Shown in pieces: positions 4,225 to 53,001 of a DNA stretch of 64,000 bases; position 1 is the stretch's first letter; each line of letters opens with the position of its first letter. The position numbers and the translations under genes are program-made. Below the pieces are notes generated by a model. That model did not search any database, had not been told where the DNA came from, and was given only the letters and a program-made list of their open reading frames with translations. Origin of the DNA: Gammaproteobacteria bacterium (lineage in GTDB: Bacteria > Pseudomonadota > Gammaproteobacteria > Enterobacterales > Kangiellaceae); assembly GCA_013373375.1 (NCBI GenBank), contig JABXHY010000005.1, forward strand, positions 1 through 64,000, read 5' to 3'.

Positions 4225-4227
4225 ATT

Positions 4228-8448: not shown

Positions 8449-8544
8449 AAATAGATTAGTTTAATCACAGAGTGCATTTAAAAAGTAGAAAACACTTTTT
8501 TGCGCAGACAAAATTTGGTAGCTGTCTTTAAATTTTTCGAATCG

Positions 8545-9074: not shown

Positions 9075-9084
9075 CTATTAGCCT

Positions 9085-9429
9085 TTACTCGGATGTATTG
9101 TCTTTAGATTTAGCACGCTCGATGCATGCCATAGTTTGGTCGGTTAGTTGAATGCTTAATTCCGTTGCATCCTCTTGCTCAGCAGAGAGAAGCTGCAGCG
9201 CTAATTTGTCGTTAAGACAGCGAGAAAAATGTTTATTAATCAAAGCTTCACAGGCTCTATCATCCCGACAAAGATCAATTAATCCAGATTGATAAGTCTG
9301 TTTGAAAAGTAACAGATTTTTTTCTGATTCTTCCAGCTCACGATCAGAACCAAACTCATCACTGCTATTTATGTCGCAGCCGGAAAGTACCAAGCAACAA
9401 AAAACTGCAATTGTTTTAAACGACGTCAT
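9085..9429 (-). CDS. Small hypothetical lipoprotein
   Basis: 114 residues with a type II signal peptide and lipobox LSGC (Cys18). The residue after Cys is Asp, which in enterobacterial rules favours inner-membrane retention. The mature part is acidic and helical, with three further cysteines (LCRDDRACEALI, FSRCLND, MACIERA) that resemble spaced disulfides. The start overlaps the end of folA by 14 bases, so it is probably coupled to folA. Family not recognised. Confidence 0.7.
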   Translation of the reverse strand: MTSFKTIAVFCCLVLSGCDINSSDEFGSDRELEESEKNLLLFKQTYQSGLIDLCRDDRACEALINKHFSRCLNDKLALQLLSAEQEDATELSIQLTDQTMACIERAKSKDNTSE

Positions 9430-9910
9430 AAGTCACAAACCGATACTCGTAAGGATTTTTGTCATCGGCTTTATGGGTTTCTTCAGCGACAGTTTTTAAT
9501 TCAAGGTGATCATATTTGGGGAAAAAGGCGTCACCGTCAGTTGTCAGATCAATAAAAGTTAAATACAGTCGGTCTGCTTGATCTATGGTTTGCTGATAAA
9601 TATTGCCACCACCAGTGATCATGATTTCGTCGTGCTGCTGTAAATGTTCTAATGCTTGTTCAATACTTTCGACGACTGTAACGCCTTCGCTGTGCCAATC
9701 TTTATTTCGGGTAATGACAACATTCTCTCGACCCGGCAACGGTCGACCAATCGACTCAAATGTTTTGCGTCCCATAACAATAGGTTTACCCATTGTTGTT
9801 TGCTTGAAATGCTTTAAGTCGGCTGGCATATGCCACGGCATCGCATTATCTTTTCCGATAACGCGATTATTTGCCATTGCACAAATGAGTGAAATCTTTG
9901 GTAGAGTCAT
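9416..9910 (-). CDS. folA: Dihydrofolate reductase
   Basis: 164 residues. It reduces dihydrofolate to tetrahydrofolate with NADPH. Family motifs are all present: ANNRVIGKDNAMPWHMPADLK with the catalytic Asp ~27, MGRKTFESIGRPLPGR, and MITGGGNIYQQ. It follows thyA by 62 bases on the same strand, the common thyA-folA arrangement that pairs dTMP synthesis with recycling of the dihydrofolate it makes. Confidence 0.97.
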   Translation of the reverse strand: MTLPKISLICAMANNRVIGKDNAMPWHMPADLKHFKQTTMGKPIVMGRKTFESIGRPLPGRENVVITRNKDWHSEGVTVVESIEQALEHLQQHDEIMITGGGNIYQQTIDQADRLYLTFIDLTTDGDAFFPKYDHLELKTVAEETHKADDKNPYEYRFVTYDVV

Positions 9911-9972
9911 AATGAGTTCAATTCTTAATTTAGCTTGTTTACTTTTGCAAACTGTTGATTAAATTCTGTGTA

Positions 9973-10767
9973 TTATACAGCAACCGGCGCTTTTATGTGC
10001 GGATGACTCTCATAGTTAAGAATTTCAAAATCTTCAAACTCATAACTGTACAGATCCCCTGGTTTACGACGGATGTTAAGCTGCGGCAGTGGCAGTGGTT
10101 CTCTGGACAATTGTGTTTTGGCTTGCTCAAAATGATTGGCGTATAAGTGAACGTCGCCACCGCTCCAAATAAACTCGCCAACATCTAAGTTGCATTGCTG
10201 CGCCATCATGTGGGTGAGCAACGCATAAGACGCAATATTAAAAGGTACTCCGAGAAATATATCCGCGCTGCGCTGGTACAATTGGCACGAGAGCTTTCCA
10301 TCTGCAACGTAAAACTGAAACAGCGAATGACACGGTGGTAACGCCATTTCATCGGCCACACCAGGATTGTAGGCGACAACCATTAAGCGTCGAGAATTCG
10401 GATTATTTTTTATTTGTTCAACAACATTACTGATTTGGTCAACGGTCGTTCCATCGGGCTTTTTCCAGCTGCGCCATTGCTCGCCGTATACCGGGCCTAA
10501 GTCTCCACTTTCGTCGGCCCACTCATCCCAGATTGAAACGCCATTGTCTTTTAAATATTGAATATTGGTATCACCATTAAGGAACCATAAAAGTTCGTAA
10601 ATTATCGAACGCAAATGCAACTTTTTAGTGGTCACCAATGGAAAACCTTGTTGAAGATCGAATCGCATTTGATAACCAAAGACACTGCGCGTTCCAGTAC
10701 CTGTTCGATCACCCTTGTCAGCGCCGTTGTCAAGCACGTGTTTCATCATGGTTAAATATTGCTGCAT
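9973..10767 (-). CDS. thyA: Thymidylate synthase
   Basis: 264 residues, the exact length of the E. coli enzyme. It converts dUMP and methylene-THF to dTMP and DHF. The catalytic cysteine is in [12 protein letters not shown], the phosphate-binding arginines are in [21 protein letters not shown], and [12 protein letters not shown] is at the N-terminus. It sits 48 bases downstream of lgt, as in many Gammaproteobacteria (lgt-thyA), and upstream of folA. Confidence 0.97.
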
Positions 10768-10815
10768 ACTAACTACTCATTTTTCTTTAATTCACGAAAC
10801 TAAATAAACCATCGA

Positions 10816-11658
10816 TCAATTTGATTTGGCTTTTTTCTTATTTTTCGACTCAGTCTTGGCAACATCGAAAACAGGTTTGCGGTAAGCCAAAACCACCAAC
10901 ACCAGGCCTAATACAATCATCGGCGCACTCAGGACCTGTCCCATTGTTAACCATTCTGCCATGTGTTTAAGGTGCTCATCGGGCTCCCTAAAATACTCGA
11001 CCATAAATCGGAAACCACCATACCCCATTAAAAATAATCCAGAAGTGGCCATTCGCGGTCGAGGCTTTGCGCTGTACCAATACAATAAAATAAATAGAAC
11101 GACACCTTCTAAAACAAACTCATACAGTTGTGATGGATGCCGATAAAGTTTTTCAGGATCTGTTGGGAATATCATCGCCCAAGGCGTGCTCTCTAGATCG
11201 GTCGGTCTGCCATAAAGTTCAGCATTTATAAAATTGCCAACTCGGCCGACGCCCAACCCAATAGGTGCTAGTGGTGCAATAAAGTCTGCCAGCGACCAAA
11301 AAGGTTTCTTTGTTTTTTTAGCAAACAGAACAAAAGCAGCGATTACCCCGAGCATGCCACCATGAAAGGACATACCGCCTTCATAAACTTTGAATAAATA
11401 AAGCGGATTCGCAATAAAAAGATCGAAGTGATAAAACAGCACATAACCAACTCTGCCCCCTATCACGACGCCCAGAAAACCATAAAAGATAAAATCGCTA
11501 ATTTCATCTGGAGTCCAGATGCTACCGGGCTTTTTGGCCCGATTTACACCAAGCCACCAAGCTGCGGCAATACCTATAAGGTAAGCAAGTGCATACCAAC
11601 GAAGCGCGATAGGTCCATAAATTTGAAAAATAACTGGATCAATCTGTGGAAATTCCAT
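10816..11658 (-). CDS. lgt: Prolipoprotein diacylglyceryl transferase
   Basis: 280 residues, polytopic inner-membrane enzyme that attaches diacylglyceryl from phosphatidylglycerol to the lipobox cysteine of prolipoproteins. The Lgt signature GRVGNFINAELYGRPT and the essential YEGGMSFHGGMLG motif are intact, and about seven membrane helices are visible. The C-terminus is Lys-rich (SKNKKKAKSN). It follows the TauE/SafE gene by 7 bases. Confidence 0.97.
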   Translation of the reverse strand: MEFPQIDPVIFQIYGPIALRWYALAYLIGIAAAWWLGVNRAKKPGSIWTPDEISDFIFYGFLGVVIGGRVGYVLFYHFDLFIANPLYLFKVYEGGMSFHGGMLGVIAAFVLFAKKTKKPFWSLADFIAPLAPIGLGVGRVGNFINAELYGRPTDLESTPWAMIFPTDPEKLYRHPSQLYEFVLEGVVLFILLYWYSAKPRPRMATSGLFLMGYGGFRFMVEYFREPDEHLKHMAEWLTMGQVLSAPMIVLGLVLVVLAYRKPVFDVAKTESKNKKKAKSN

Positions 11659-40342: not shown

Positions 40343-40371
40343 TTGAGCAATCAGTTTGATTGCGGTATTCT
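40343..40371 (+). promoter_or_regulatory. Promoter candidate for the kinase-phosphatase-FHA operon
   Basis: TTGAGC (40343-40348) and TATTCT (40366-40371) are separated by exactly 17 bases. The predicted transcript would start near 40378, giving a leader of about 36 bases before the kinase ATG. No strong Shine-Dalgarno is seen before that ATG. Confidence 0.45.
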
Positions 40372-40413
40372 GCGGGCTTATTCCCAACAAATGGATGATT
40401 AAAATTCCTTAAT

Positions 40414-42018
40414 ATGAGTGCTCAGTCGCCTTACACTCATTACTCCTGGCTATCCAGTGGATGGCTTATGCTGTTGCTCGCCTCGTGTTCGGTACTGGTT
40501 TTTACTGCGTGGAACTCGCCTTACTTCAACGAAGCCTATCATTTAGTATTCACACGAATTGCGCCACAGGCCACAACTTTACCGCAACACCATCCACTCT
40601 ATGAGTTGCTGATATTAGGAGGAGCTGGACTGGCAATACCTCTGTTCTGGTATTTCACAACTCTATCCTGGCGAGTCCATGTTTTGGTTTTTATGGGAAT
40701 TGTTGCTGCTATTGCTGCAAGCTTTGTTGCTGGACTTCAGGAATATGATTTTCAATTGCCAGCCATCGAATGGGCATCATTAGTGTGCCTTAGCGGTTTA
40801 CTCAGTTGTTTTGAAAAGCTCCATCAAAGACCTCTTCAAAAATTACAACTGCAACAACAACGTCTCGGATTACTTGCAGCAGAACATCAACTGCAGCAAC
40901 AATTACTGAGTGCTGCACTTTCAACTTTAGGTGAGCTGAAAGTAAGCGATAACTCATTAGAGCTTGGTTATCGCATTGGGCAGCAAGCAGAGCGAAAACG
41001 GGATTACTCTACAGCAACACGAACTTACCAGTGGTTGTTGCAACACAAAAAGGGTTACCGAGACTGTGCAGAACGATTGCAGCATTTGGGTAAAATAACC
41101 AAACCCTCGCAAGGCATGAGTCAAACAATTGCTATCGATGGAACATTGCTGTTACCAACCGAAGGACTCCAACCACCTACACTTGGTCGATATCGAATCG
41201 AAAGTGTTTTGGGCAAGGGAGCCATGGGAGTTGTTTACCGAGGAGTTGACCCAGCCATTAATCGCGAGGTTGCGATAAAGACACTGGCTCTTGGACAGGA
41301 GTTCGAAGGCGCAGAACAGCAAGTCGCCCGCTCACGTTTTTTCCGTGAAGCAGAAACAGCAGGAAAACTAAATCACCCAAACATTGTCACTATTTACGAT
41401 GTTGGTGAAGAACATGACCTGGCATTTATTGCGATGGATCTACTACCCGGCGTAGCGCTCGACAGACATGCCAAAAAGCCTGATTTAGTTAAGCCTGTTA
41501 TGGTTTACCAGCTAATGATTCAAATTGCATCAGCACTCGCGTATGCTCATGATAAAGGTGTTGTTCATCGCGATATAAAGCCGGGCAATTTAATTTATGA
41601 CAACGAAAAGCATAAAGTTATCATTACTGATTTTGGTATCGCACATTTAACCGATCAAAGTAAAACGCGAACTGGTGCAATTCTGGGAAGCCCGTTTTAT
41701 ATGTCACCAGAACAAGTGCAAGGGCAAAAAGTAGACGGGCGCTCTGACATTTTTAGTTTAGGGGTAACCTTTTATCAATTATTAACCGGCAAGCTCCCGT
41801 TTAAAGGCGACTCGCTTGCTGCAGTCGCACTCAACATAACCACTCAAAAACACGAACCAATTCGCAAATTGAGAACTGATTTACCGCAAAGCGCTAGCCG
41901 AATTGTTAATAAGGCACTAAACAAAGAGAAAGACAGACGCTATCAAAATGTTGCAGAGATGAGAGAAGCCCTGATTACTGCCCTAAAACGTGATTTTAAT
42001 ACCGAGCCGTTTCAATGA
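40414..42018 (+). CDS. Membrane Ser/Thr protein kinase with CHASE2-tail-like N-terminus
   Basis: 534 residues. The N-terminal ~135 residues hold about four membrane helices that resemble the transmembrane tail of CHASE2 receptors, but without the extracellular sensor domain. A Gln/Leu-rich helical linker (~140-230, TPR-like around RKRDYSTATRTYQWLL) leads to a full Hanks-type kinase (~262-530): P-loop GKGAMGVVYRG, VAIK, HRDIKPGN (~385), DFG (~406) and SPFYMSPEQ. All catalytic residues are present, so it should be active. The PP2C gene follows after 16 bases and the FHA gene 11 bases after that, giving a kinase-phosphatase-phosphopeptide reader unit. Confidence 0.9.
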   Translation: MSAQSPYTHYSWLSSGWLMLLLASCSVLVFTAWNSPYFNEAYHLVFTRIAPQATTLPQHHPLYELLILGGAGLAIPLFWYFTTLSWRVHVLVFMGIVAAIAASFVAGLQEYDFQLPAIEWASLVCLSGLLSCFEKLHQRPLQKLQLQQQRLGLLAAEHQLQQQLLSAALSTLGELKVSDNSLELGYRIGQQAERKRDYSTATRTYQWLLQHKKGYRDCAERLQHLGKITKPSQGMSQTIAIDGTLLLPTEGLQPPTLGRYRIESVLGKGAMGVVYRGVDPAINREVAIKTLALGQEFEGAEQQVARSRFFREAETAGKLNHPNIVTIYDVGEEHDLAFIAMDLLPGVALDRHAKKPDLVKPVMVYQLMIQIASALAYAHDKGVVHRDIKPGNLIYDNEKHKVIITDFGIAHLTDQSKTRTGAILGSPFYMSPEQVQGQKVDGRSDIFSLGVTFYQLLTGKLPFKGDSLAAVALNITTQKHEPIRKLRTDLPQSASRIVNKALNKEKDRRYQNVAEMREALITALKRDFNTEPFQ

Positions 42019-42034
42019 GACTAATATAAACCCT

Positions 42035-42796
42035 ATGCCATCTTTTGACTGGAAAATCAGCGGCGTGTCAGATCAAGGCAAAAAGCGCCAAAGTAATGAA
42101 GATGCTATCGGTTGGCAAACCGACCGCAAGCGCGGCTGGTTGTGTGCTGTTATTGCCGATGGCATGGGTGGGCATGCTGCAGGTGAAGTCGCTAGCGATA
42201 TGGCGCGTACTCAATTCTTGGACTTAGTTGAAGAGCTGTTTACTTCTCCGGCCAGTTCTTACCCGAGTGAAATCACGATGCGTAAAGCACTTAGCGAATA
42301 TGTTTTGCATGTTGATCAACAAATCAAAGCACACGCTAAATCTCATCCTGAAGACGAAGGATTAGGAACGACCTTAGTTGCCATCGTTTTATTTGATAGT
42401 CAATGCTGGCTCGTGAATATAGGGGACTCTCGGTGCTATCGTTTGAGAGGTGATAACTTCAAACAGCTTACTCGCGACGACACATTAGTTCAGAGCTGGA
42501 TAGATAACGGCCAAATTACTTATGAAAAAGCAGAGCAATCTCCTTATCGAAATGTCTTAACCCAGGCGCTTGGCGCAAAAGAGTCTCTCAGCCCTCAAAT
42601 TTTATCCATTGATGTTAACTCTCAAGATAAATTTATTTTATGCAGCGATGGACTAAGTAACTGCATGTCAGATGCTTTTATGAGCGATGTTCTGGCTCGC
42701 AATCCGATTGATAACGCGACACAGCAATTACTTGACGAAGCTCTCAGCGTTGGTGCGCCAGATAATGTATCTTTGATAGTTGTTGCAAAAGAATAA
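42035..42796 (+). CDS. PP2C-family Ser/Thr protein phosphatase
   Basis: 253 residues from the ATG at 42035; an upstream in-frame start at 41990 would lie inside the kinase gene. The PP2C metal ligands are intact: SNEDA, ADGMGGHAAGE, NIGDSRCYR, ILCSDGLSN and the final PDNVSLIVV. It should remove phosphate placed by the kinase encoded just upstream. A cytoplasmic soluble enzyme without a regulatory domain. Confidence 0.93.
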   Translation: MPSFDWKISGVSDQGKKRQSNEDAIGWQTDRKRGWLCAVIADGMGGHAAGEVASDMARTQFLDLVEELFTSPASSYPSEITMRKALSEYVLHVDQQIKAHAKSHPEDEGLGTTLVAIVLFDSQCWLVNIGDSRCYRLRGDNFKQLTRDDTLVQSWIDNGQITYEKAEQSPYRNVLTQALGAKESLSPQILSIDVNSQDKFILCSDGLSNCMSDAFMSDVLARNPIDNATQQLLDEALSVGAPDNVSLIVVAKE

Positions 42797-42807
42797 ACGG
42801 AGCAAAT

Positions 42808-43161
42808 ATGGCTTATATCGGTTTAATCGTCGATGATGTTGTGGTCAATAAGTTCGAACTTAATAATAATGTCCTTACCATCGGGCGTTCGCCAGAAAAT
42901 GATGTCCCTATTGAAGATAATTCGGTCTCAAGTTTTCACGCGCAAGTACTCAAAGAAGACGACCCTTATCTTGAGGGCCAAACTCAATATATCTTAGAAG
43001 ATCTCGATAGCACTAACGCTACTAAAGTGAATGGTCTAAAAATCAATCACCATAAACTTATTAATGGCGATTTGATTCAAATTGGCTACAATAAATTCCG
43101 TTTTGTCGACAAAAGCCAAGTTAACCTCGATCGAACGGCCGTTATTGTTCCTGAGTCGTAA
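42808..43161 (+). CDS. FHA-domain protein
   Basis: 117 residues, essentially one forkhead-associated domain: IGRSPENDVPIEDNSVSSFHA and LEDLDSTNATKVNG carry the phosphothreonine-binding Arg, Ser, His and Asn. It reads phosphothreonine marks made by the upstream kinase. GGAG lies before its ATG. The small size suggests an adaptor that links phosphorylation to another protein, possibly the AAA+ ATPase or the flotillin downstream; this is inference. Confidence 0.9.
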   Translation: MAYIGLIVDDVVVNKFELNNNVLTIGRSPENDVPIEDNSVSSFHAQVLKEDDPYLEGQTQYILEDLDSTNATKVNGLKINHHKLINGDLIQIGYNKFRFVDKSQVNLDRTAVIVPES

Positions 43162-43238
43162 AAAATTGTAATATCCTCGCGATCTCAAAGACTATATCAC
43201 CAAACACTTCACGAAAGTTATCTCGGTTAAGGAAGACA

Positions 43239-43262
43239 TTCAAGTCAGGCTTTTGGCTTGAA
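43239..43262 (+). other. Hairpin between the FHA and yqiJ genes
   Basis: TTCAAGTC (43239-43246), 8-base loop, GGCTTGAA (43255-43262): an 8-base stem with one G-U wobble, in the 166-base gap between the FHA gene and yqiJ. No T-tract follows, so it is not a clear terminator. Confidence 0.3.
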
Positions 43263-43327
43263 AGATAGTAAAACGGTAGTTTGATGCTTTAAGGAATATC
43301 AACGCTTTAAAATTTGGGTGATATTAA

Positions 43328-43972
43328 ATGAACGATATTTGGGCAATCGCCAGTGAGTATCCCACTGGAATTTTCACCATTATCAACCTGGTGCTTATTG
43401 GCTACTGGTTGTTAGTTGCCATAGGCCTTATGGATTTTGACTTTTTTGACCTGGACGTCGATACAGACACCAGTGTTGATGATATTGGTGGCTTTGCAAC
43501 CTTTCTTGCCACTCTTGGATTTACAGGGGTTCCCGTAACCATAGTGTTAACCATTTTATTTTTTTGCGCATGGGGCATTTGCTACATCGGCGCTAAGCTT
43601 CTTTTATCATGGCTAGATATCAGCATGATTAGTGTGTTACTGGGTACGGTGATTTTAATTGCTAGCTTCATTGTTGCAATTCCAGTAACCAATATGATCG
43701 TTAGGCCGTTAAGGAAGCTCTTTAGGAAATTGTATGCCGAGAGTAACAACCAAGATCTAGTTGGCCGACCAGTCAAAGTAAGAAGTAGCAGAGTAGACGC
43801 TACATTTGGAGAAGCTGTATGTGCTCACAAAGGAGCCAGCTTATTACTAAAAGTTCGAACAGCAACGCCTGAAAAAATCTTTACCCGAGGTGATGTAGCA
43901 GTATTGGTAGAGTACAACTCAGACAAGCATATCTATTACATAGTCGATCAAAAAGAATTTGAAACAAATTAA
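43328..43972 (+). CDS. yqiJ: YqiJ-like membrane protein with C-terminal OB fold
   Basis: 214 residues. Three or four membrane helices (~15-38, 58-85, 95-122) precede a C-terminal OB-fold/NfeD-like domain (~135-210, LVGRPVKVRSSRVDATFGEA). In E. coli and others YqiJ is the partner of the flotillin-like YqiK, and the same order is seen here with yqiK 24 bases downstream. The pair forms membrane scaffold assemblies. Confidence 0.87.
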   Translation: MNDIWAIASEYPTGIFTIINLVLIGYWLLVAIGLMDFDFFDLDVDTDTSVDDIGGFATFLATLGFTGVPVTIVLTILFFCAWGICYIGAKLLLSWLDISMISVLLGTVILIASFIVAIPVTNMIVRPLRKLFRKLYAESNNQDLVGRPVKVRSSRVDATFGEAVCAHKGASLLLKVRTATPEKIFTRGDVAVLVEYNSDKHIYYIVDQKEFETN

Positions 43973-43996
43973 TATCTCACATTTTAAGGAAAAGTT

Positions 43997-45958
43997 ATGA
44001 GCGAATATATTTTGCCTATTGCCGGAATAGTACTGGGAGTCATAGTAGTACTCGGTATTTTCATATCGTCGGTCTATAAAAAGGTTCCGCAAGGATACGC
44101 CTTAATTGTAAACAATATGTCAGCTAAACCAAAAGTTAGCTTTACCGGTTCTATGGTAATACCGGTCATTAATAAAATGGAAGTCATGAAAATTTCCTTA
44201 ATCACTTTGGAGATTGATCGACGTGGTAAGGAAGGGCTTATTTGTAAAGATAACTTAAGAGCTGATATAACGGTTGCATTTTATTTACGCGTTAACGAAA
44301 CGGCGGATGACGTATTAAAAGTCGCGAAATCTATCGGCGTTGACAGAGCCTCCGACAAAGATGCCGTAAACCTGTTGTTTAATGCAAAATTTTCTGAAGC
44401 TCTAAAAACTGTCGGAAAGCAAATGGATTTCCTTGACCTATTTGAAAACCGAATTTCCTTCCGAGAAAAAATAGTCGAAGTTATTGGCGAAGATATGAAC
44501 GGTTATGTTCTTGAAGATGTCGCAATTGACTATTTAGAGCAAACTCCTAAATCTCATTTGGATCGCTCAAATATCTTAGACTCAGAAGGTATTCGCCGAA
44601 TAACAGAAATTACTGCAACCAGAAATATAGAAACCAATCGTTTAGAACGTGATGAAGAACTAGCGATTACTAAAAAGAATGTTGAAACCAAAGAAGCTCT
44701 TTTAGCACTTGAAAGACAAGAAGCAGACGCAACCGCAAAACAAAGGAGAGAAATTGAAACGATTCAAGCTCGAGAAAGTGCAGAAACAGAGAAAGTACGC
44801 TTTGAAGAACAGCTGAAGTCCGAAGAAGCTCGTCTGGCAACCGAAGAACAAGTCGCGATTCGTGAAGAAAATAAAAAACGTCAGATAGAAGTTGCTGAAC
44901 AAAATAGGTTACGTGCAGTTGTTATTGAACAAGAAAAAGTAATAAAGGCAAAAGAGTTAGAAGAAGTAAATCGACAACGTGAAGTTGAGCTAGAAACGAT
45001 CAACAAAGAAAAAGCTCTGGAAGTAGAAAGAAAAATAATCGCTCAAACAATTAGTGAACGAATCGCTGTCGAAAAGAAAGTTGCCGAAGAAGAAGAAAGA
45101 ATCAAAGAAGTACAAGTAGTCTCTGAGGCTGATCGTTTAAAACAAGTAAAAGTACTTGAAGCGCAAGCAGAAGCAGAAGAGGCAATGATAAAAGCGGTTA
45201 AGCAAGCCGAAGCAGATGAGCGATCTGCAGAGCATAAAGCTAAAGAAATTAATATGATCGCCCAAGCTGATCTCGAAGCTGCTTCGAAAAAGGCTGAAGC
45301 TCAAAAGAAAGAAGCTGAGGGCAAGCAGGCACAACTTGCAGCTTCAGGTTTGGCTGAGGCGCAAGTCACCCATGCAAAAGCAGATGCTACTGAAAAACAA
45401 GGTCTTGCAGAGGTAAGGGTAAAAGAAGCAAATGCAGTTGCGCTCGAGAAAGAAGGTTTAGCTGAAGCAAAAGTAATGGAAGAGAAATACTCTGCAGAAG
45501 CCAAAGGTGTCGAAGAACTAGGGCTGGCAGAAGCTCACGCTAATAAAGAAAAAGGTTTGGCCGCAGCTTCTATTACTCTTGAGCAAGCAAAAGCTGAAGC
45601 TCAAGGCTTGATTGAGAAGTTCAATGCAATGAGTGGTATGACTCCAGAAGCTAGAGACTTTGAAGAATTCAAGATGAAACTAGAAGCACATCTTAAAGAG
45701 GAACTTGCAAAAGTTGAAGCTAGTAAAGATGTCGCTGCTGATCAAGCTGCAGTAATCGCGAAAGCACTTGAGCATGCAAATATCGACATTGTTGGAGGAA
45801 GTAATGACTACTTTGAGAAAATGGCGAAAGGAATGGGCATGGGAAAAGCACTCGATGGTTTTCTCGATCAATCTCCAGTAGTCACTTCTCTGATAGAAAA
45901 GTTTCTTGGGGGTAACAGCACAAAAGATATCAACTCTAAGCCGAATGATAACATTTAA
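43997..45958 (+). CDS. yqiK: Flotillin-like SPFH/Band 7 protein YqiK
   Basis: 653 residues. An N-terminal membrane helix (~5-25) leads to an SPFH/Band 7 domain (residues ~30-200, KVPQGYALIVNNM, LRADITVAFYLRV) and a very long Glu/Lys/Ala coiled coil (~205-560) containing AEAKV/EKEGLAEA-like repeats, as in flotillins. It ends with a non-coiled tail. SPFH proteins oligomerise and organise membrane microdomains. A 9-base-pair hairpin separates it from the AAA+ gene. Confidence 0.92.
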   Translation: MSEYILPIAGIVLGVIVVLGIFISSVYKKVPQGYALIVNNMSAKPKVSFTGSMVIPVINKMEVMKISLITLEIDRRGKEGLICKDNLRADITVAFYLRVNETADDVLKVAKSIGVDRASDKDAVNLLFNAKFSEALKTVGKQMDFLDLFENRISFREKIVEVIGEDMNGYVLEDVAIDYLEQTPKSHLDRSNILDSEGIRRITEITATRNIETNRLERDEELAITKKNVETKEALLALERQEADATAKQRREIETIQARESAETEKVRFEEQLKSEEARLATEEQVAIREENKKRQIEVAEQNRLRAVVIEQEKVIKAKELEEVNRQREVELETINKEKALEVERKIIAQTISERIAVEKKVAEEEERIKEVQVVSEADRLKQVKVLEAQAEAEEAMIKAVKQAEADERSAEHKAKEINMIAQADLEAASKKAEAQKKEAEGKQAQLAASGLAEAQVTHAKADATEKQGLAEVRVKEANAVALEKEGLAEAKVMEEKYSAEAKGVEELGLAEAHANKEKGLAAASITLEQAKAEAQGLIEKFNAMSGMTPEARDFEEFKMKLEAHLKEELAKVEASKDVAADQAAVIAKALEHANIDIVGGSNDYFEKMAKGMGMGKALDGFLDQSPVVTSLIEKFLGGNSTKDINSKPNDNI

Positions 45959-45967
45959 AGTACTCCT

Positions 45968-45990
45968 GACGGCGCTTTCATAGCGCTGTC
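45968..45990 (+). terminator. Hairpin between yqiK and the AAA+ gene
   Basis: GACGGCGCT (45968-45976), loop TTCAT, AGCGCTGTC (45982-45990): a 9-base-pair stem with one G-U pair, followed by a T-rich but interrupted run. It may attenuate transcription into the 5.3-kb downstream gene and so set its level below that of yqiK. Confidence 0.4.
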
Positions 45991-46032
45991 CTATTTACTT
46001 ATTTATCGTATATCAACCAAAGGATATAAACT

Positions 46033-49000
46033 GTGGCCGAAAATAAATCGTCACTTGTTGATAACCAAATAGAGCAAGCTGTTTCCGAAGGCGGCGCTTA
46101 TGAAGTCATACATAAGCGCTTAATTGATCAAGGAACAACACTTTCTGCATTAACTGATGATTTAAATACGCAGCGCCAGAAGGAATTTGGAAGCACCGAA
46201 ATGCAGGTACTTAGTCGATTAAGGCTACGTACCGATAATAATTGTGAAGCACGCGACTTGGTGTTGGTCGGCAACTTAGTTTTGTTTGGATACAACGTAT
46301 TCCTGGGTCTCAGAAAAGAAACCCAGATCGAAGATGTGTTTTCAGTTTATAAGCTCATCGAGAAAGATGATACATATGAACTAGAATCCATTAATCTTAA
46401 ATCTACTTTTCTTGCCGATCAACAGTTTGTTGGCGATTTTCGTGAGCTCTACACTTATTACAAAGACACTGCTCTATCTCAACTTGTTGTTAAAGAAGGA
46501 AAGTTACTTGCCTCTTTTCAAATTGGCGATCGTATAACAGATGTTCGCGTCTTCCGTTGGCGTATATCAGATGATACAACCACGATAGAATATATTGATA
46601 ATCGCGGTGAACGCGATATTGAACTCCCTTCAAGTCATGACTTTGAATGGAGCGAATGTCAAAGAGAGGATGTTATAAATGGACGGCATCCTCACATTAA
46701 TGTACTGGATACGATATTTGTTGACACCTTAGATAGTAATCTAACCATTAAACTGGAAAACAATACAGACACTGGAAAAGGTATTTATGCTGAACCAGTC
46801 GATGATACCACACAATCATTGGATGACGCTGAATTTTACCATAGCTCTGTGGGCTCGCTTATTTTATTAAAAATCAGACCCTATCAAGAAAAACAATGGC
46901 GGTATCTGGTCTTTAATAAAAATACAGAACAGGTTACCCGCATAGATGCAATAGGAGACTCTTGTGTACAGTTACCAGAAGATCATGGTCTTATGTTCCC
47001 AGGTGGTTATTATTTAACAACAGGTGAGCACAAAACATTTGATCACGGCTACAAAAATTTAAAGTTCAAACGTTCCGTTCGGTCGCCGAATGGCGAAGAC
47101 GTGTTGTTCATCTTCTATCAACCTGATTCGAATATTATTGGTCTATACGCATATAATTTAATTAGCAAATCATTACAAAATCCGTTGTTTGGCCACGGAT
47201 ACGGATTCTATCCTGATGGTCGTTTGCTAATTTTTTATGCGCAAGAGGAAGCAACTAGGATCCACCCTCTGCAGGTTTGGCAAACACCCTTTTATTCCGA
47301 TGAGTATGCAAGCAAGCAACCAGAAAGCTCAAGTTTTTTTGGCAAGATTGGTAATGCCGAATTAGTAAGAGGCATTTCGGAACTTTTTTCGATAGCTAGG
47401 TTAATTAAGTCGAACGATGCTTCCGCAGCGCATTTTAATGACCTAGCAAAACGGTCGCTTAAAATATTTGATGCTTATCATTGGCTCTCAGCTCACGAAC
47501 TCGGAGAGATTGAATCTTGCTTAAAGAAAATAAGTAAAACTTCTGAGTTGGTGATTGATGAATATGAAAAAGTTAAAAGTATTCAAAAACAATCAACAAA
47601 AGCTCTTACTGATGCTGAGTTAACTCAAAAAGAATTAATTCGTGAGCTTGAAGCAAAAAACTGGCAGAACACCGAAAATTTTGTTCAAGCAATCGACAAG
47701 CTTAATCGGCAGCGAGGCCATCTTTTAACAATTCGTGACTTGCGATACATTAATCGCAAAAAGATTGATGAGCTTGAGCAGCAAATAATTGAGCATGAGG
47801 AACGTTTGAATCATCGAACTGTCGATTTTCTCGCGAATCCAAACTCTCTCGACAGCTACCACCATAAAATACGTCAACTTCAGCATGATAGAGAGCATTG
47901 TAAAACCTCTGCAGATTTGGCGCCTCTAGTTGATGATTTAGAACAAATGGCAAGCTCGTTAGATTTACTTTCTGAATTAATGGCAACATTAAAAGTAGAT
48001 GATGCCACAGTTCAAACAAAAATAATCGAAGATGTTTCCAGTGTTTACTCAAAGCTCAACCAGGTAAAAGCTCAGCTAGAACATCAAAAGCAAAGTTTTG
48101 GCTCAGAAGAAGTAACAGCGCAGTTTGCAGCTCAATTCAAATTACTATCCCAAAGTATACAAAACGCTCTAGGGCTAGCTAAAACTCCAGATAAATGTGA
48201 CGAGCAGTTATCACGTTTGATAGTTCAATTAGAAGAATTAGAAGGTCAGTTCAGTGAACATGATGACTTTCTTGCGGATATTTTAAGCAAACGTGAAGAG
48301 ATTTTTGAAACTTTTGAGTCTCATAAGCAAAATTTAATTAATACTCTTCAGCGTAAAGCGCAAACACTTTATGATGCAGCACAAAGAATAATTCAAAGCA
48401 TTAGGAAGCGGGCACAAAGAATATCAGATGCAGACGAGCTAAATACCTTTTTCGCTTCTGATGGTTTGATTAGGAAAGTACAACAATTAAGTGGAGAATT
48501 AAGCGAACTTGGTGATAGTGTTAAGGCAGATGATTTAAATGCTCAATTAAAATCTGCAAAGGAAAGTGCAATCCGATCTCTTCGAGATAAAAGCGATATC
48601 TACGAAGATGATGGTAAAATAATAAAGTTAGGTCCAAAACATAAATTTAGTGTTAATACTCAAAGTTTAGACCTTACTTTGTTGCCAAGACAAAATAAAC
48701 TATACATTCACCTTTCAGGTACAGAATATTACGAAGAACTCGCTGACTCTCCTCTAAATGAGTATTCAAGTTACTGGCTAATGTCACTGCCATCAGAATC
48801 AGATCTGGTCTATCGAGCTGAATATTTAGCCTATATAATCATCGAATCGGCTAACAATAACTCAGATGGATTTAATTGGGAAAGTTTAAAAAAAGCCTGC
48901 GCAAATGAAGGAGATTTAAACGAGTTAGTTAAGTCATTTATCGCTCCGAGATACAAAGAGGGATTTGAGAAAGGTATCCATGATCACGATGCGGCGCAAA

Positions 49001-51297
49001 TATTGAAAAGGATAGTGCCAAATTATGAAGCGGCAGGTAGCTTAAGGTTCACTCCTCTTCCGCGCTCTTTAGCCATTATTTACTGGTCTGAAGTACAACT
49101 TAATGATGAATTTAAAAGCTGGCACCAAAGAGCTCAAAATGCTTTAAGAATACGAAAACTTTTTTCTGAAACAGCTGCATTCGATATGTTAACAAAAGAA
49201 ATCTCTTTATTTTTAAAAGAGTTTCTTATTAAAGAACAAATAGAAATCGAAGACATAATAATTTCTCGTTCTGCAGAATACCTAATAGAAGAACTTGGTC
49301 AAGATCAAGTTAGCTTTTCAGTTTCTAAATATGCAGATCAACTCAAGAAAGATTTCCAGTTATATTTAGAATCAGAGGGTGCTTGGCAAGATTTTCAGAC
49401 TGCATTGAATGAACTAGATGGTAATGTAGGACAACGATGGCACTTAGCATTGCACTGGCTTTCGGGTTTCGTGAATTTTAAAGGAAGTAATCTTAACACT
49501 TACATTCCTGAAGCTGCCAATCTTCTAACAGTGACTCGATCAATCGAAAGGCAAGTTCATCAAGTCGATTTAGCCTTTAATTTCGAAAACTTACTTGGAC
49601 AACATAAAAAAATCAACAATCAAAAACTGAAAATAACGCTTGATCAATTTCTAGAAGAGATGGCTCTTCACCATCAAGAAGTCCAACCCAAATATTATGC
49701 TTACCATAAAGTTCGCCATTTTGAAATTGAGAGACTTAAAAATGAGCTTCGAATAAAGGATTTTGTTGCCAGGCCGCTTACATCTTTTGTCAGAAATAAA
49801 TTAATTAATAATGTTTATTTGCCTGTAATAGGCGACAACCTAGCAAAGCAAATGGGAACAGTTGGCGACAATAAGCGAACAGACCTGATGGGACTTCTAT
49901 TAATGATTTCTCCTCCGGGATACGGAAAGACAACTTTAATGGAATATGTTGCTGACAGACTGGGTTTAATATTCATGAAGATCAATTGTCCTTCTATTGG
50001 ACACGATATAACGTCGATCGATCCGTCACAAGCTAAAAATAGCGCTTCGCGACAAGAGTTGGAAAAACTCAATTTGGCTTTGGAGATGGGTAATAATGTA
50101 ATGCTGTATTTGGATGATATTCAGCATACAAGCCCTGAATTTTTACAGAAATTTATTTCTTTATGTGATGGTACTCGTCGTATTGAAGGCGTCTGGAAAA
50201 GGCAGTCAAAAACTTATGATATGCGAGGCAAGAAATTTTGTGTAGTAATGGCAGGAAATCCTTACACGGAATCAGGAGAGCTATTCAAAATTCCTGATAT
50301 GCTGGCAAATCGCGCTGACATTTATAATTTGGGAGATATGCTTACCGGGCAAGAAGAAGTATTTGAACTAAGTTACATTGAAAACTCGCTTACTTCTAAT
50401 AAAGTGTTGGCACCTTTAGCGACTCGAGAGATGAGCGATGTTTACAAGTTTATTGATATGGCAAAAACTGGTTCAACTTCTGCAACCGATCTTAGTTACC
50501 AATACAGTGGCGCAGAAGTAAATGAAATTGTTGATGTAATTAGAAAGCTTTTCATAATTCAGAGCTTAGTTTCGAGAATAAATCAAAATTACATCTCCTC
50601 AAGTGCTCAGGATGATCGTTACCGGACAGAGCCCCCGTTCAAATTACAAGGCTCCTATAGAAATATGAATAAAATGGCCGAGAAGGTTACATCAGTTATG
50701 ACTGAGGAAGAAATATTGCAATTGATCACTGATCATTATCAAGGTGAAGCGCAATTGTTGACAACTGGTGCAGAAGAAAACTTACTAAAACTCTCAGAGC
50801 TTCGAGGTAACATGACAAGTGAGCAATCTTCCCGCTGGAGTAAGATAAAGGAAAATTTTGAACGAAACCAGTCTGTAGGTGGAGGTGAAGCAGACACAGG
50901 TAAAAAAATAGTTATGCAACTTCATGATTTAGTAAATCATGTAAAAAGCCTAAGCAACTTTTCAAAAGCCGATAATAACGATAAAGACAACCTTAATTTA
51001 TCTAAGATTGAACAACAGTTAAGTATGATCTTAGATAAGTGGGATAAAAGCATTCCAAGTATTGAAGTAATCAATCAGCCAACGCCAGGTATTGAGCAAA
51101 CTCTAAAATCCTTTAATGAAATTTTCGAAAAAAGCATCCTGCCACTAATTAAGGTTATGGATGGTAAGTTAGATCTAGACTTGAAAACTCATGAAAAGAT
51201 GACATCTATCGAAAATCAAATTAAAAAACTAAACGAAAAATCTACGATAGTTAATAAAAAAGTAAAATCTTCTGATCGGGATAATTTAGACAGATGA
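46033..51297 (+). CDS. Giant AAA+ ATPase with DUF3686-like N-terminal region (annotated in relatives as DNA repair ATPase)
   Basis: 1754 residues, starting at a GTG preceded by AAGGA. The N-terminal ~460 residues form a beta-rich domain (for example TEMQVLSRLRLRTDNNCEARDLVLVG cut here, NGRHPHINVLDTIF). Residues ~480-870 are coiled coil. A middle region follows. The AAA+ module lies at ~1240-1560, with Walker A PPGYGKTTL (~1293-1301), Walker B MLYLDDIQ (~1357-1364) and sensor-1 VVMAGNPYT (~1403). The C-terminus (~1620-1754) is again coiled. Relatives are called DNA repair ATPase, but direct evidence for that role is weak, and the gene often lies with flotillin and PspA genes. An inference is that it remodels membrane-associated proteins. 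Confidence 0.8.
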   Translation: MAENKSSLVDNQIEQAVSEGGAYEVIHKRLIDQGTTLSALTDDLNTQRQKEFGSTEMQVLSRLRLRTDNNCEARDLVLVGNLVLFGYNVFLGLRKETQIEDVFSVYKLIEKDDTYELESINLKSTFLADQQFVGDFRELYTYYKDTALSQLVVKEGKLLASFQIGDRITDVRVFRWRISDDTTTIEYIDNRGERDIELPSSHDFEWSECQREDVINGRHPHINVLDTIFVDTLDSNLTIKLENNTDTGKGIYAEPVDDTTQSLDDAEFYHSSVGSLILLKIRPYQEKQWRYLVFNKNTEQVTRIDAIGDSCVQLPEDHGLMFPGGYYLTTGEHKTFDHGYKNLKFKRSVRSPNGEDVLFIFYQPDSNIIGLYAYNLISKSLQNPLFGHGYGFYPDGRLLIFYAQEEATRIHPLQVWQTPFYSDEYASKQPESSSFFGKIGNAELVRGISELFSIARLIKSNDASAAHFNDLAKRSLKIFDAYHWLSAHELGEIESCLKKISKTSELVIDEYEKVKSIQKQSTKALTDAELTQKELIRELEAKNWQNTENFVQAIDKLNRQRGHLLTIRDLRYINRKKIDELEQQIIEHEERLNHRTVDFLANPNSLDSYHHKIRQLQHDREHCKTSADLAPLVDDLEQMASSLDLLSELMATLKVDDATVQTKIIEDVSSVYSKLNQVKAQLEHQKQSFGSEEVTAQFAAQFKLLSQSIQNALGLAKTPDKCDEQLSRLIVQLEELEGQFSEHDDFLADILSKREEIFETFESHKQNLINTLQRKAQTLYDAAQRIIQSIRKRAQRISDADELNTFFASDGLIRKVQQLSGELSELGDSVKADDLNAQLKSAKESAIRSLRDKSDIYEDDGKIIKLGPKHKFSVNTQSLDLTLLPRQNKLYIHLSGTEYYEELADSPLNEYSSYWLMSLPSESDLVYRAEYLAYIIIESANNNSDGFNWESLKKACANEGDLNELVKSFIAPRYKEGFEKGIHDHDAAQILKRIVPNYEAAGSLRFTPLPRSLAIIYWSEVQLNDEFKSWHQRAQNALRIRKLFSETAAFDMLTKEISLFLKEFLIKEQIEIEDIIISRSAEYLIEELGQDQVSFSVSKYADQLKKDFQLYLESEGAWQDFQTALNELDGNVGQRWHLALHWLSGFVNFKGSNLNTYIPEAANLLTVTRSIERQVHQVDLAFNFENLLGQHKKINNQKLKITLDQFLEEMALHHQEVQPKYYAYHKVRHFEIERLKNELRIKDFVARPLTSFVRNKLINNVYLPVIGDNLAKQMGTVGDNKRTDLMGLLLMISPPGYGKTTLMEYVADRLGLIFMKINCPSIGHDITSIDPSQAKNSASRQELEKLNLALEMGNNVMLYLDDIQHTSPEFLQKFISLCDGTRRIEGVWKRQSKTYDMRGKKFCVVMAGNPYTESGELFKIPDMLANRADIYNLGDMLTGQEEVFELSYIENSLTSNKVLAPLATREMSDVYKFIDMAKTGSTSATDLSYQYSGAEVNEIVDVIRKLFIIQSLVSRINQNYISSSAQDDRYRTEPPFKLQGSYRNMNKMAEKVTSVMTEEEILQLITDHYQGEAQLLTTGAEENLLKLSELRGNMTSEQSSRWSKIKENFERNQSVGGGEADTGKKIVMQLHDLVNHVKSLSNFSKADNNDKDNLNLSKIEQQLSMILDKWDKSIPSIEVINQPTPGIEQTLKSFNEIFEKSILPLIKVMDGKLDLDLKTHEKMTSIENQIKKLNEKSTIVNKKVKSSDRDNLDR

Positions 51298-51452
51298 CTA
51301 TTTGTTAGATTATATATTTAATATCTTCTGCGAAACCTAAAAGCTTTAAACTAAGCGATTGAATTATTTGCAGCAATATAGATCATTAGAGTTTGTATAT
51401 TAATGCAATTGAAAATCTGATTGAATATTACTTATACAAATTCAAAAAATTG

Positions 51453-51800
51453 TTATTTGTTACCGTCAATTGACGTAATTAGTAACTTTGTAACTTCATG
51501 CTTTATCGAGATTCTATCTTTAGGATCAATGCTAAATTTCTCAGCTAGTTTGTCATAATCTTCATCAGATAATGAAAGTGTTAAGCGAGGTCTTATCTTC
51601 TTAGCCTTAAACTCTAGCCCTAGAATTTTTCGTATAAAGTCAGAAGGCTTTAAACCCTCTTTCACCGACTGTAACTGTACATATTGGTGTACCGACTCGC
51701 TTACATCAATGGCAACTTGAGTTGCTTTAACAGCAGTTGCTTGTGAGTCCCACTTTTGCTTAGTATTTTGTTTCATATTTGTAAGTAAAAAGCCGTCCAT
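51453..51800 (-). CDS. Small DNA-binding-like protein with two tandem ribbon-helix-helix-type units
   Basis: 115 residues from the ATG at 51800, or 107 from an ATG at 51776; neither has an ideally spaced ribosome-binding site (AAGGAG lies 13 bases before the first). Two short beta-strand plus two-helix segments can be seen: QVAIDVSESVHQYVQLQSV with GLKPSDFIRKILGL (~28-65), and RLTLSLSDEDYDKLAEKF followed by KHEVTKLLIT (~72-112). This pattern resembles a fused pair of ribbon-helix-helix halves. It is the last gene of the yjfI-pspA operon and is the best candidate for the regulator that binds the palindromes at its promoter. The fold call is pattern-based. Confidence 0.55.
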   Translation of the reverse strand: MDGFLLTNMKQNTKQKWDSQATAVKATQVAIDVSESVHQYVQLQSVKEGLKPSDFIRKILGLEFKAKKIRPRLTLSLSDEDYDKLAEKFSIDPKDRISIKHEVTKLLITSIDGNK

Positions 51801-51810
51801 GGCTTATTAA

Positions 51811-52503
51811 CTACTCCTTTGATTTAGCTTTGATTCGAGCCAACACATCATTAGCTCGATTCGATTTAGAGTCGATACCAGCGTCAGATAATTTTTTTTC
51901 TAAAGCTTTATCTCCTGTTTCTGCATTTAACTGCTCAGTTGCTTTAATCTTATCTTCTGTATGCTGCTGCCGTTCTTTTATTCGCTTTAATGTATCTCTT
52001 GCAGCCGAGGCCTGAGATAAGTTTGAAGATAAATTATTATTAACTGAAGCTCTAGCTTTCTGCACATTCTCAGTTGTTTTAGCTAAAGATAATTCTCGCT
52101 TGTATTCTTGAATTGACTTTTCAGCATCTTTAATTTGAGTTTTTAATGACTCAATACCACTGTCATAATTACTTAAAATATTTTCAAGTTCAGCTTTCTC
52201 TTCTTCAAACTCTGCAATTTTCTGAGCGATTTCTAGAGCTAAGTGCTCGTCATCTTTTTCAAGAGCCTGTTTAGCAAAATTTTCATGCTCAGCAATTTTT
52301 TGTACTAAGCTGTTTATTGTTCGAGCCGTTTTAGCTCTGTCAGCCATTACATCTGTTAATGAATCCTTTGCTTTTTCAATTGCATTTTCTTGGTCGGCAA
52401 TTTCTTGTTCCAAAATTCTCATTGAGTTTGAATCAACAACTGCCTCTCCTAACTCCCTGGCCCCGCCGCGAATCGCGGTAACAATTTTTCGAATGATACT
52501 CAT
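51811..52503 (-). CDS. pspA: PspA/IM30 family membrane-repair protein
   Basis: 230 residues, all-helical coiled coil as in PspA, Vipp1 and YjfJ. The N-terminal RKIVTAIRGGARELGEA is the amphipathic membrane-binding helix, and long heptad helices follow to ~190. It forms ESCRT-III-like rods or rings that patch damaged membranes. A good Shine-Dalgarno (AAGGAG, 6 bases before the ATG) is present. Gene order yjfI-pspA matches yjfI-yjfJ of E. coli rather than the pspABC operon, so it is probably the YjfJ branch. Confidence 0.93.
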   Translation of the reverse strand: MSIIRKIVTAIRGGARELGEAVVDSNSMRILEQEIADQENAIEKAKDSLTDVMADRAKTARTINSLVQKIAEHENFAKQALEKDDEHLALEIAQKIAEFEEEKAELENILSNYDSGIESLKTQIKDAEKSIQEYKRELSLAKTTENVQKARASVNNNLSSNLSQASAARDTLKRIKERQQHTEDKIKATEQLNAETGDKALEKKLSDAGIDSKSNRANDVLARIKAKSKE

Positions 52504-52516
52504 AGTTATCTCCTTT

Positions 52517-52933
52517 TCAATTTAAAAATTCTTCAAGCGCTCGCAAAGCTTCGAGTGCATTTTCTGATTGCGTTACCAATTCATGTGCGATGGCGTCATT
52601 AGAACTTTGGACGCTGATTGCACCAAACATTACATACTCGTTATCAATCAACCCAATTGAGCTAAGCGGAATGTTGACGGATAACTTTAATAATATTTCG
52701 TTTAGTTCGGTCAGCAATTCAGAGCTTATCTCTGACTTACTAAATAAATTGGTTACACATAATATTTGTTCTTCCGTAGCTGTCACGTAAATCGGAAGTT
52801 CGTCAAATCCTTCGACAACCACCTGTAATACAGAAATATCACCTTGCCTGCCTTCGAGAATTGGCAAAACATCTATTATGTAACCGTCCTGTACTTTACC
52901 GTTCAGCGCAATTGCTAAATCCTTTAATATCAC
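52517..52933 (-). CDS. yjfI: DUF2170 family protein YjfI
   Basis: 138 residues beginning with GTG, chosen because AGGAGG (52940-52945) lies 6 bases before it. The protein has an alpha/beta fold with the DUF2170 pattern seen next to PspA homologues (ILEGRQGDISVLQVVVEG, IPLSSIGLIDNEYVMFGAIS). Function unknown; it is consistently paired with PspA/YjfJ, and it may control or cap PspA assemblies. First gene of a three-gene operon, 13 bases from pspA. Confidence 0.82.
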   Translation of the reverse strand: MILKDLAIALNGKVQDGYIIDVLPILEGRQGDISVLQVVVEGFDELPIYVTATEEQILCVTNLFSKSEISSELLTELNEILLKLSVNIPLSSIGLIDNEYVMFGAISVQSSNDAIAHELVTQSENALEALRALEEFLN

Positions 52934-52939
52934 GATAAT

Positions 52940-52945
52940 CCTCCT
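52940..52945 (-). promoter_or_regulatory. Strong ribosome-binding site of yjfI
   Basis: AGGAGG on the minus strand, 6 bases before the GTG at 52933. It decides the start codon. Confidence 0.75.
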
Positions 52946-52950
52946 CTCAG

Positions 52951-52963
52951 GACATATTATGTC
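52951..52963. promoter_or_regulatory. Operator palindrome 1 (GACATA-T-TATGTC)
   Basis: A perfect 13-base palindrome around one central base, identical to the copy 36 bases away. It lies at the predicted transcription start of the yjfI-pspA operon, between the -10 element and the ribosome-binding site. Binding here would block transcription initiation or clearance. Confidence 0.75.
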
Positions 52964-52972
52964 AATGAACTT

Positions 52973-53001
52973 AGAATATGATACCCGACATATTATGTCA
53001 A
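52973..53001 (-). promoter_or_regulatory. Promoter of the yjfI-pspA-RHH operon
   Basis: On the minus strand, TTGACA (53001-52996) is a perfect sigma-70 -35 element, and TATTCT (52978-52973) is the -10, with 17 bases between. Transcription would start near 52966. The -35 overlaps operator 2 and the start lies at operator 1. No sigma-54 type GG-N10-GC element was recognised, unlike the E. coli psp operon. Confidence 0.65.
52987..52999. promoter_or_regulatory. Operator palindrome 2 (GACATA-T-TATGTC)
   Basis: The second identical copy, overlapping the -35 hexamer of the promoter. The distance between the two centres is 36 bases, about 3.4 helical turns. The identical 14-base context (including a trailing A) indicates selection rather than chance. 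Confidence 0.75.

What the first reader, a model, noticed from the sequence alone, without database searches (positions are those of the whole stretch)
40343..53001. Possible phospho-signalled membrane-stress module: kinase-PP2C-FHA + YqiJ-YqiK + giant AAA+ ATPase facing YjfI-PspA-RHH
Seen: a membrane Ser/Thr kinase, PP2C and FHA genes in one tight run (gaps 16 and 11 bases), then YqiJ, YqiK and a 1754-residue AAA+ ATPase, facing DUF2170-PspA-small protein. Known: PspA/IM30 and flotillins both act at damaged membranes, and DUF2170 and large AAA+ proteins are reported near PspA/flotillin genes. Inference: kinase/phosphatase signalling through the FHA adaptor controls the flotillin/AAA/PspA machinery. 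The complete grouping, especially the phosphosignalling arm, is the best candidate in this window for an undescribed system.
Basis: partly seen in the sequence, partly recalled or inferred. Interest (0 to 1): 0.8.

Follow-up and report, generated by a model that had tools for sequence, protein, structure and literature searches.

The report
Membrane-stress gene cluster with own repressor
The kinase genes look like unrelated neighbours, but the PspA membrane-repair genes beside them appear to be controlled by a small unnamed DNA-binding protein and a matching DNA switch that recur together in many related bacteria.

Summary
The gene list is real. Phospho-signalling control is not supported. Of 125 distinct DUF3686-ATPase loci, 3 (window, G001, G009) have the kinase-PP2C-FHA trio beside the flotillin/AAA/PspA genes, and their ATPases form one clade, so the adjacency probably arose once. 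Two same-genus genomes carry gpmI-kinase-PP2C-FHA next to cysQ with only an ~80-aa ORF between; elsewhere in the family the trio stays with gpmI while the ATPase is absent or far away. The YjfI-PspA-YqiJ-YqiK-AAA+ grouping was described by Ravi et al. 2024 (PMC11237479, passages read). Not found in print in my searches: the 115-aa "small protein" (RHHL, two predicted ribbon-helix-helix units, below Pfam/NCBIfam cut-offs) tracks a palindrome, GACATANTATGTC, at the yjfI-pspA promoter. It is present (<=1 mismatch) in 50 of 55 yjfI promoters with RHHL in the locus and 0 of 48 without, including 17 of 20 loci picked by RHHL alone. In some genomes the same sites precede yqiJ, nhaA, an M48 protease or NfeD/SPFH genes. 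RHHL is probably the repressor of a PspA-centred membrane-stress regulon.

The parts
40414..42018 (+). membrane Ser/Thr protein kinase (bystander)
   Evidence: Pkinase E 2.6e-52 at residues 260-511; VAIK/HRD/DFG motifs and hydrophobic N-terminal stretches read in the sequence by eye; next to gpmI in relatives lacking the cluster
42035..42796 (+). PP2C phosphatase (bystander)
   Evidence: PP2C_2 E 6.9e-20; same gpmI neighbourhood in G002-G004
42808..43161 (+). FHA-domain protein (bystander)
   Evidence: FHA E 6.8e-18
43328..43972 (+). YqiJ-type membrane protein
   Evidence: no Pfam hit; found in 47 of 49 near loci (window included) and 67 of 80 far loci
43997..45958 (+). YqiK flotillin/SPFH-type protein
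   Evidence: no Pfam hit above cut-off; tblastn to plasmid genes, three of ten listed annotated SPFH or flotillin; found in 48 of 49 near and 77 of 80 far loci
46033..51297 (+). 1754-aa AAA+ ATPase with DUF3686 and DUF7902
   Evidence: DUF3686 E 4.3e-195, AAA_5 E 3.1e-07; GYGKTT and DD (my reading: Walker A and B) invariant in 16 aligned relatives
51453..51800 (-). RHHL: small protein with two predicted beta-alpha-alpha (ribbon-helix-helix-like) units, candidate repressor
   Evidence: AlphaFold2 pLDDT 84, pTM 0.53; Foldseek probability 0.97 to CopG over 35 residues but E 0.71; co-occurrence with operator
51811..52503 (-). PspA/IM30
   Evidence: PspA_IM30 E 1.5e-34
52517..52933 (-). YjfI (DUF2170)
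   Evidence: DUF2170 E 5.1e-28
52951..52963 (.). operator 2, GACATATTATGTC, between the predicted -10 and the yjfI start
   Evidence: exact palindrome
52987..52999 (.). operator 1, GACATATTATGTC, overlapping the predicted -35 box
   Evidence: exact palindrome 36 bp from operator 2
52973..53001 (-). predicted yjfI-pspA-RHHL promoter TTGACA-17-TATTCT
   Evidence: 10 of 12 consensus positions; 3 promoter-like sites in the region against 1.0 in shuffles; TTGACA at the first operator in 41 of 50 loci with an operator

Best explanation
Two separate units meet here. The kinase-PP2C-FHA trio is a cassette usually next to gpmI in this family, and a flotillin/AAA+/PspA cluster came to lie between it and cysQ, most simply once, in a common ancestor of the window's genus and G009's. 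The cluster is the known kind in which YqiJ/YqiK membrane scaffolds, a giant AAA+ ATPase and a PspA (ESCRT-III-like) polymer with its YjfI partner maintain or remodel damaged inner membrane (function inferred from published families). Its PspA operon is controlled by its own third gene: RHHL, a small ribbon-helix-helix-like protein, binds two GACATANTATGTC palindromes, one over the -35 box and one just downstream of the -10, and represses yjfI-pspA-RHHL until membrane stress releases it. In relatives with more sites RHHL probably also controls yqiJ-yqiK-AAA, nhaA, an M48 (HtpX-like) protease and NfeD/SPFH genes. Shown by computation: gene content, conservation, sites without the cluster, operator-RHHL co-occurrence, site placement. 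Inferred: DNA binding, repression, the releasing signal, membrane function.
For: gpmI-trio-cysQ in L066 and L067; trio next to gpmI apart from or without the cluster in other genomes; trio in 3 of 125 distinct DUF3686 loci, one ATPase clade at 100% SH-aLRT (39 chosen rows). Operator: 50 of 55 yjfI promoters with RHHL in the locus, 0 of 48 without, Fisher p 6e-24; the other 119 permuted half-sites score at most 1 of 55. 17 of 20 loci picked by RHHL alone have it at <=1 mismatch and all 20 at <=2. All 8 genomes with an operator at the ATPase locus but no RHHL there have RHHL elsewhere, a prediction noted beforehand; 19 of the 33 comparable genomes have RHHL elsewhere, so by my arithmetic chance is about 0.005. 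First site begins TTGACA in 41 of 50. NhaA, M48, NfeD and SPFH genes next to further exact sites. RHHL model.
Against: No binding or expression data. RHHL family hits are weak (RHH_1 in 2 of 20 members, best E 0.0084, not in the window's own), Foldseek E-values are not significant (best 0.47), pTM is 0.53, and its two halves show no sequence similarity. In the window yqiJ has no operator (best 4 mismatches), so control of the flotillin/AAA arm is not shown in this genome. Of the 19 genomes with RHHL away from the ATPase, 11 show no operator at <=1 mismatch at the ATPase locus (at least one locus, L056, is cut short). Two RHHL-positive genomes (G292, G1003) showed no site at all. The backwards control pattern also turns up, in 9 of 51 genomes. 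The further target list has no random-gene control. The loci are related, so the Fisher p overstates independence; 'without RHHL' means in the fetched locus, checked genome-wide only for the G-handle genomes.
Confidence: 0.78

Rival explanations
1. One reading: kinase, phosphatase and FHA adaptor regulate the flotillin/AAA/PspA machinery as one dedicated module.
For: Tight trio and close adjacency in three genomes, apparently kept since a common ancestor; no promoter- or terminator-like pattern between FHA and yqiJ in the window, so read-through is possible.
Against: 3 of 125 distinct loci, one clade; trio retained without the cluster in G002-G004 and G019 and apart from it in G006, G013, G016, G022. 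Some contigs end close to the ATPase, so a few neighbours could be missed.
Confidence: 0.07
2. The palindrome is real but is bound by another regulator that merely travels with RHHL, which has another role (for example a PspA or YjfI partner).
For: RHHL's assignment as DNA-binding rests on a model and weak fold matches. I did not test whether another neighbour tracks the palindrome as well.
Against: Co-occurrence with RHHL in cis and in trans (8 of 8); RHH-like topology fits a short palindromic site.
Confidence: 0.13
3. The cluster is an accessory or defence island at a variable site between FHA and cysQ.
For: In same-genus genomes the site is without the cluster (G003, G004) or followed by other genes (G002); DUF3686 is patchy, 10 of 369 class and 8 of 398 phylum genomes; a similar operon lies on megaplasmid pQBR103.
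Against: No PADLOC hit for FHA, YqiJ, YqiK, AAA, RHHL or YjfI; hits of the kinase, PP2C and PspA look generic.
Confidence: 0.06

Closest known systems
CesT/Tir(YjfI)-PspA + band-7/flotillin + YqiJ + beta-propeller AAA+ operon (Ravi et al. 2024, PMC11237479; passages read)
   Same: Same gene kinds: PspA/YjfI dyad with YqiJ, flotillin-type protein and giant AAA+
   Different: The passages I read mention no kinase, PP2C, FHA or RHH gene in this operon type and no operator; here the PspA arm is convergent with the AAA+ arm
Spermine-synthase type YjfI-PspA operon with DUF350, DUF4178 and, in some cases, a terminal RHH factor (same paper)
   Same: In G001, G009, G013 and others RHHL lies downstream of PspA and a ~213-aa protein (weak DUF4178 in G001) with genes upstream that in G013 are Spermine_synth and DUF350
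   Different: The window keeps only YjfI-PspA-RHHL; the operator and control of several operons are not in the passages read; whether their RHH protein is RHHL was not checked by accession
pspF-pspABC (classical PSP)
   Same: PspA-centred envelope stress
   Different: The own genome has another PspA next to a 339-aa protein that I take for PspF by eye (L002); here an RHH-like protein with an overlapping sigma70-like promoter
CopG/Arc-type ribbon-helix-helix repressors
   Same: beta-alpha-alpha topology, palindromic site over a promoter
   Different: Two units in one chain; no Pfam or NCBIfam model above cut-off

Membership tests
Ravi et al. YjfI-PspA-flotillin-YqiJ-AAA+ cluster | PspA and YjfI (DUF2170) as neighbours | tested here: met
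Ravi et al. YjfI-PspA-flotillin-YqiJ-AAA+ cluster | large AAA+ beside YqiJ and a flotillin-type protein | tested here: met
   beta-propeller and coiled coil not tested
Ravi et al. YjfI-PspA-flotillin-YqiJ-AAA+ cluster | all genes in one operon | tested here: not met
   PspA arm convergent with the AAA+ arm in window and G001; upstream and co-directional in most loci that have it
Dedicated kinase-PP2C-FHA-flotillin module | conserved adjacency in distant genomes | tested here: not met
   3 of 125 distinct loci, one clade
Ribbon-helix-helix DNA-binding proteins | beta-alpha-alpha fold matching known RHH structures | tested here: inconclusive
   CopG probability 0.97, rmsd 0.8 over 35 residues, but E 0.71; pLDDT 84; sequence hits below cut-off
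Ribbon-helix-helix DNA-binding proteins | binds operator DNA | not testable with these tools
   only co-occurrence shown
Classical pspFABC system | PspF, PspB and PspC genes beside pspA | tested here: not met
   not among the ten window proteins scanned
Classical pspFABC system | sigma54 promoter at the pspA operon | tested here: inconclusive
   sigma70-like pattern at yjfI; sigma54 consensus scan of 55 RHHL-bearing promoters found none at <=2 mismatches with GG/GC fixed

The most novel reading that the evidence does not exclude
RHHL defines an unnamed family of tandem ribbon-helix-helix repressors that runs a PspF-independent membrane-stress regulon through GACATANTATGTC, joining PspA, YjfI, polyamine-synthase-like, flotillin/AAA+, NhaA, M48 protease and NfeD/SPFH genes across Gamma- and (by recall of taxonomy) Betaproteobacteria.
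Probability: 0.68. Interest if true: 0.72.

Novelty: new variant of a known kind. Interest (0 to 1): 0.56.

Why it matters
How PspA systems outside pspF-pspABC are controlled is, to my knowledge, largely open. A short, near-invariant operator plus its likely regulator turns that into a direct test (gel shift, reporter, deletion). It also links unlinked PspA, flotillin/AAA+ and antiporter genes into one predicted response, which adjacency alone could not show.

Tried and rejected
Phospho-control of the cluster: rejected on neighbourhood counts and sites without the cluster. Defence island: PADLOC hits only for kinase, PP2C and PspA, generic in look. Sigma54 promoter for RHHL-lacking yjfI operons: inconclusive, 2 of 48 with <=2 mismatches (GG/GC fixed) against 1.8% in shuffles. 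A PspA C-terminal motif as an AAA+ docking tag: by eye on 36 listed tails the motif also occurs in PspA of loci fetched only for RHHL, where no AAA gene was found, and is absent from two other own-genome PspA proteins, so it may go with YjfI rather than AAA+; L014, L018 and L024 carry it without a YjfI in the locus, though YjfI lies elsewhere in those genomes. Internal repeat in RHHL by profile comparison: none. Search of the operator stretch in E. coli genomes: no match. Literature (partial library): 0 papers hold 4 of 6 of RHH, PspA, HtpX, NhaA, flotillin, NfeD; 0 hold 5 of 6 of the Shewanella set; the palindrome letters occur in 1 paper, on Ephedra, seen as a listing; DUF3686 in 0. Searches were read as listings; of these, three papers were opened, passages only: PMC11237479, PMC10948618, PMC9239133.
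Full report
What is there. The window encodes, left to right, gpmI (-), a membrane Ser/Thr kinase, PP2C and FHA (+), YqiJ, YqiK and a 1754-aa AAA+ protein (+), then on the minus strand a 115-aa protein (here RHHL), PspA, YjfI, cysQ and NudE. The labels gpmI, cysQ, NudE and envC are my reading of the sequences (recall), not family hits. I did not establish the species.

Is the phospho arm part of it? Pfam DUF3686 was sought in 61 relatives (18 hits), 369 class (10), 398 phylum (8) and 295 order genomes (30), overlapping sets. With the window these are 129, of which 4 are repeats, so 125 distinct. In the locus, YqiK is found in 48 of 49 near and 77 of 80 far loci, YqiJ in 47 of 49 and 67 of 80, PspA in 31 of 49 and 41 of 80 (several contigs are short, so these are lower bounds). 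The full kinase-PP2C-FHA trio is in 3: window, L014 (G009), L015 (G001). In the far set 3 loci have a lone kinase, 1 a lone PP2C, none an FHA.

Where the trio lives without the cluster. PP2C and gpmI searches in 61 relatives and fetched regions show gpmI-kinase-PP2C-FHA in G002, G003 and G004 (same genus, no DUF3686) and in G006, G013, G016, G019 and G022; of these G006, G013, G016 and G022 carry DUF3686 elsewhere and G019 has none. In G003 and G004 FHA is followed, after one ORF of 78 or 80 aa, by cysQ and NudE: the site without the cluster. In G002 other genes lie beyond FHA (an AcrB-type transporter, an AraC-type regulator and others). In G011 the trio exists away from gpmI (L076). The ATPases of the three linked loci form one clade (100 SH-aLRT, 39 chosen rows, quick method), so the juxtaposition most simply arose once, with loss or absence in three same-genus genomes.

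The known core. Ravi et al. 2024 (PMC11237479; [quoted passage not shown] In G001 both types seem to lie tail to tail at the window's site: AAA>, 396 aa>, 152 aa<, 374 aa<, RHHL<, 213 aa (DUF4178 E 0.0017, below cut-off)<, PspA<, YjfI<, 576 aa<, 299 aa<, 323 aa<, cysQ<. By position and length the 576-, 299- and 374-aa genes match G013 genes that are Spermine_synth, DUF350 and an ion channel; I did not align them. The window looks like a reduced form keeping YjfI-PspA-RHHL. Several family members also have a ~186-aa ORF before YqiJ, a rhomboid protease in the one scanned, lacking in the window.

The new part. Upstream of yjfI are two exact GACATATTATGTC palindromes 36 bp apart, the only exact ones in the genome as held. 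On the minus strand the first starts TTGACA, the -35 box of a predicted promoter TTGACA-17-TATTCT, and the second lies between -10 and the start codon. Scoring the fetched yjfI promoters (103 after dropping three cut promoters and one duplicate): with RHHL in the locus, 36 have an exact site, 14 one mismatch, 5 two; without RHHL, all 48 have three or more mismatches. Fisher p 6e-24 on <=1 mismatch. Of 120 permutations of the half-site the true one scores 50 of 55, the next best 1. Because the motif was first seen in part of this set, I then took 20 regions from the 91 of 295 order genomes with RHHL, chosen by me across families, not by the motif; none of the 20 is among the genomes listed with DUF3686. 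17 of 20 have the site at <=1 mismatch, and the other three, from one genus, at two. In 37 of 50 loci with a site there are two or more, and in 41 of 50 the first begins TTGACA.

Control in trans. Eight genomes have the operator at the ATPase locus but no RHHL there (L014, L018, L024, L025, L026, L029, L058, L154). I noted the prediction that RHHL lies elsewhere and found it in 8 of 8. The converse is weaker: of 19 genomes with RHHL away from the ATPase, 11 show no operator at <=1 mismatch at the ATPase locus. Exact GACATRNTATGTC occurs in 25 of 31 RHHL-positive and 4 of 20 RHHL-negative genomes of the 51 searched; the backwards control pattern occurs in 9 of 51. Of the six RHHL-positive genomes without exact sites, G001 and G025 have one-mismatch pairs, G918 and G974 two-mismatch sites, G292 and G1003 none seen. 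I read 20 further site regions in six genomes (not all sites were fetched, and its list was itself cut). Genes I picked as nearest, with Pfam hits: NhaA in G058, G886, G1000; M48 protease in G047, G058, G886; NfeD in G047, G1000 and, 340 bases off, G042; a band-7 protein in G042; PspA in G058 and YjfI-PspA in G846; singletons sulfate permease with M16 peptidase, esterase- or hydrolase-type enzymes, patatin with Tim44-like. L215 had no family hit, L231 ends at the site, and at L221 the LysR gene ends there, so no target is assigned. HtpX is my name for the M48 gene by recall. There is no random-gene control for this list.

What RHHL is. Twenty aligned members model as two beta-alpha-alpha-like units (helices 27-40, 44-51 and 71-81, 88-106; DSSP calls no strand in the single chain; pLDDT 84, pTM 0.53). 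Foldseek's high-probability short matches are mostly RHH repressors (CopG probability 0.97 at 0.8 A over 35 residues; also Arc, AmrZ, NikA, MatP), but no E-value is significant (best 0.47). Pfam RHH models hit one or two of 20 members below cut-off, NCBIfam and PDB sequences nothing convincing.

Most likely working. RHHL holds yjfI-pspA-RHHL down by covering its promoter; stress lifts this, PspA with YjfI assembles on the membrane, and the flotillin-type scaffold plus AAA+ act there. The release signal is unknown. In the window yqiJ lacks an operator, so for this genome only the PspA arm is placed under RHHL. The kinase trio is best read as an independent, usually gpmI-linked cassette.

Noticed in passing
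L255 (NC_009444.1, plasmid pQBR103) 4-13208: A co-directional run joins YjfI, PspA, rhomboid, DUF2491, DUF350, DUF1190, glutathionylspermidine synthase, a YqiJ-like gene, SPFH and the AAA+ gene on a Pseudomonas megaplasmid, without kinase genes.
   Followed up: partly
G000:C91 and G000:C11 (L002, L001): The own genome has two more PspA proteins, one beside a gene that looks like PspF by eye, without the C-terminal motif seen in the cluster's PspA.
   Followed up: partly
PspA C-termini of 36 loci listed: Most share a tail resembling LxxKLxxAGIxxxxxxAxxVLxRLK, a candidate binding site for YjfI.
   Followed up: partly
L242, L243, L244: One genus has degenerate operators (two mismatches) in the same promoter positions, suggesting regulator and site changed together there.
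   Followed up: no
plasmid hits: 229 Escherichia and 26 Shigella plasmid records of 318 have tblastn matches to the YqiK query; only 12 of the 318 cover 80% or more of it.
   Followed up: no
L065 (G002) 1-10924: In one same-genus genome other genes (AcrB-type transporter, AraC-type regulator and others) lie beyond the FHA gene.
   Followed up: partly
L123, L132 (Marinobacter): yjfI-pspA-RHHL and yqiJ-yqiK-AAA are divergent with one-mismatch operators between or at their starts.
   Followed up: no
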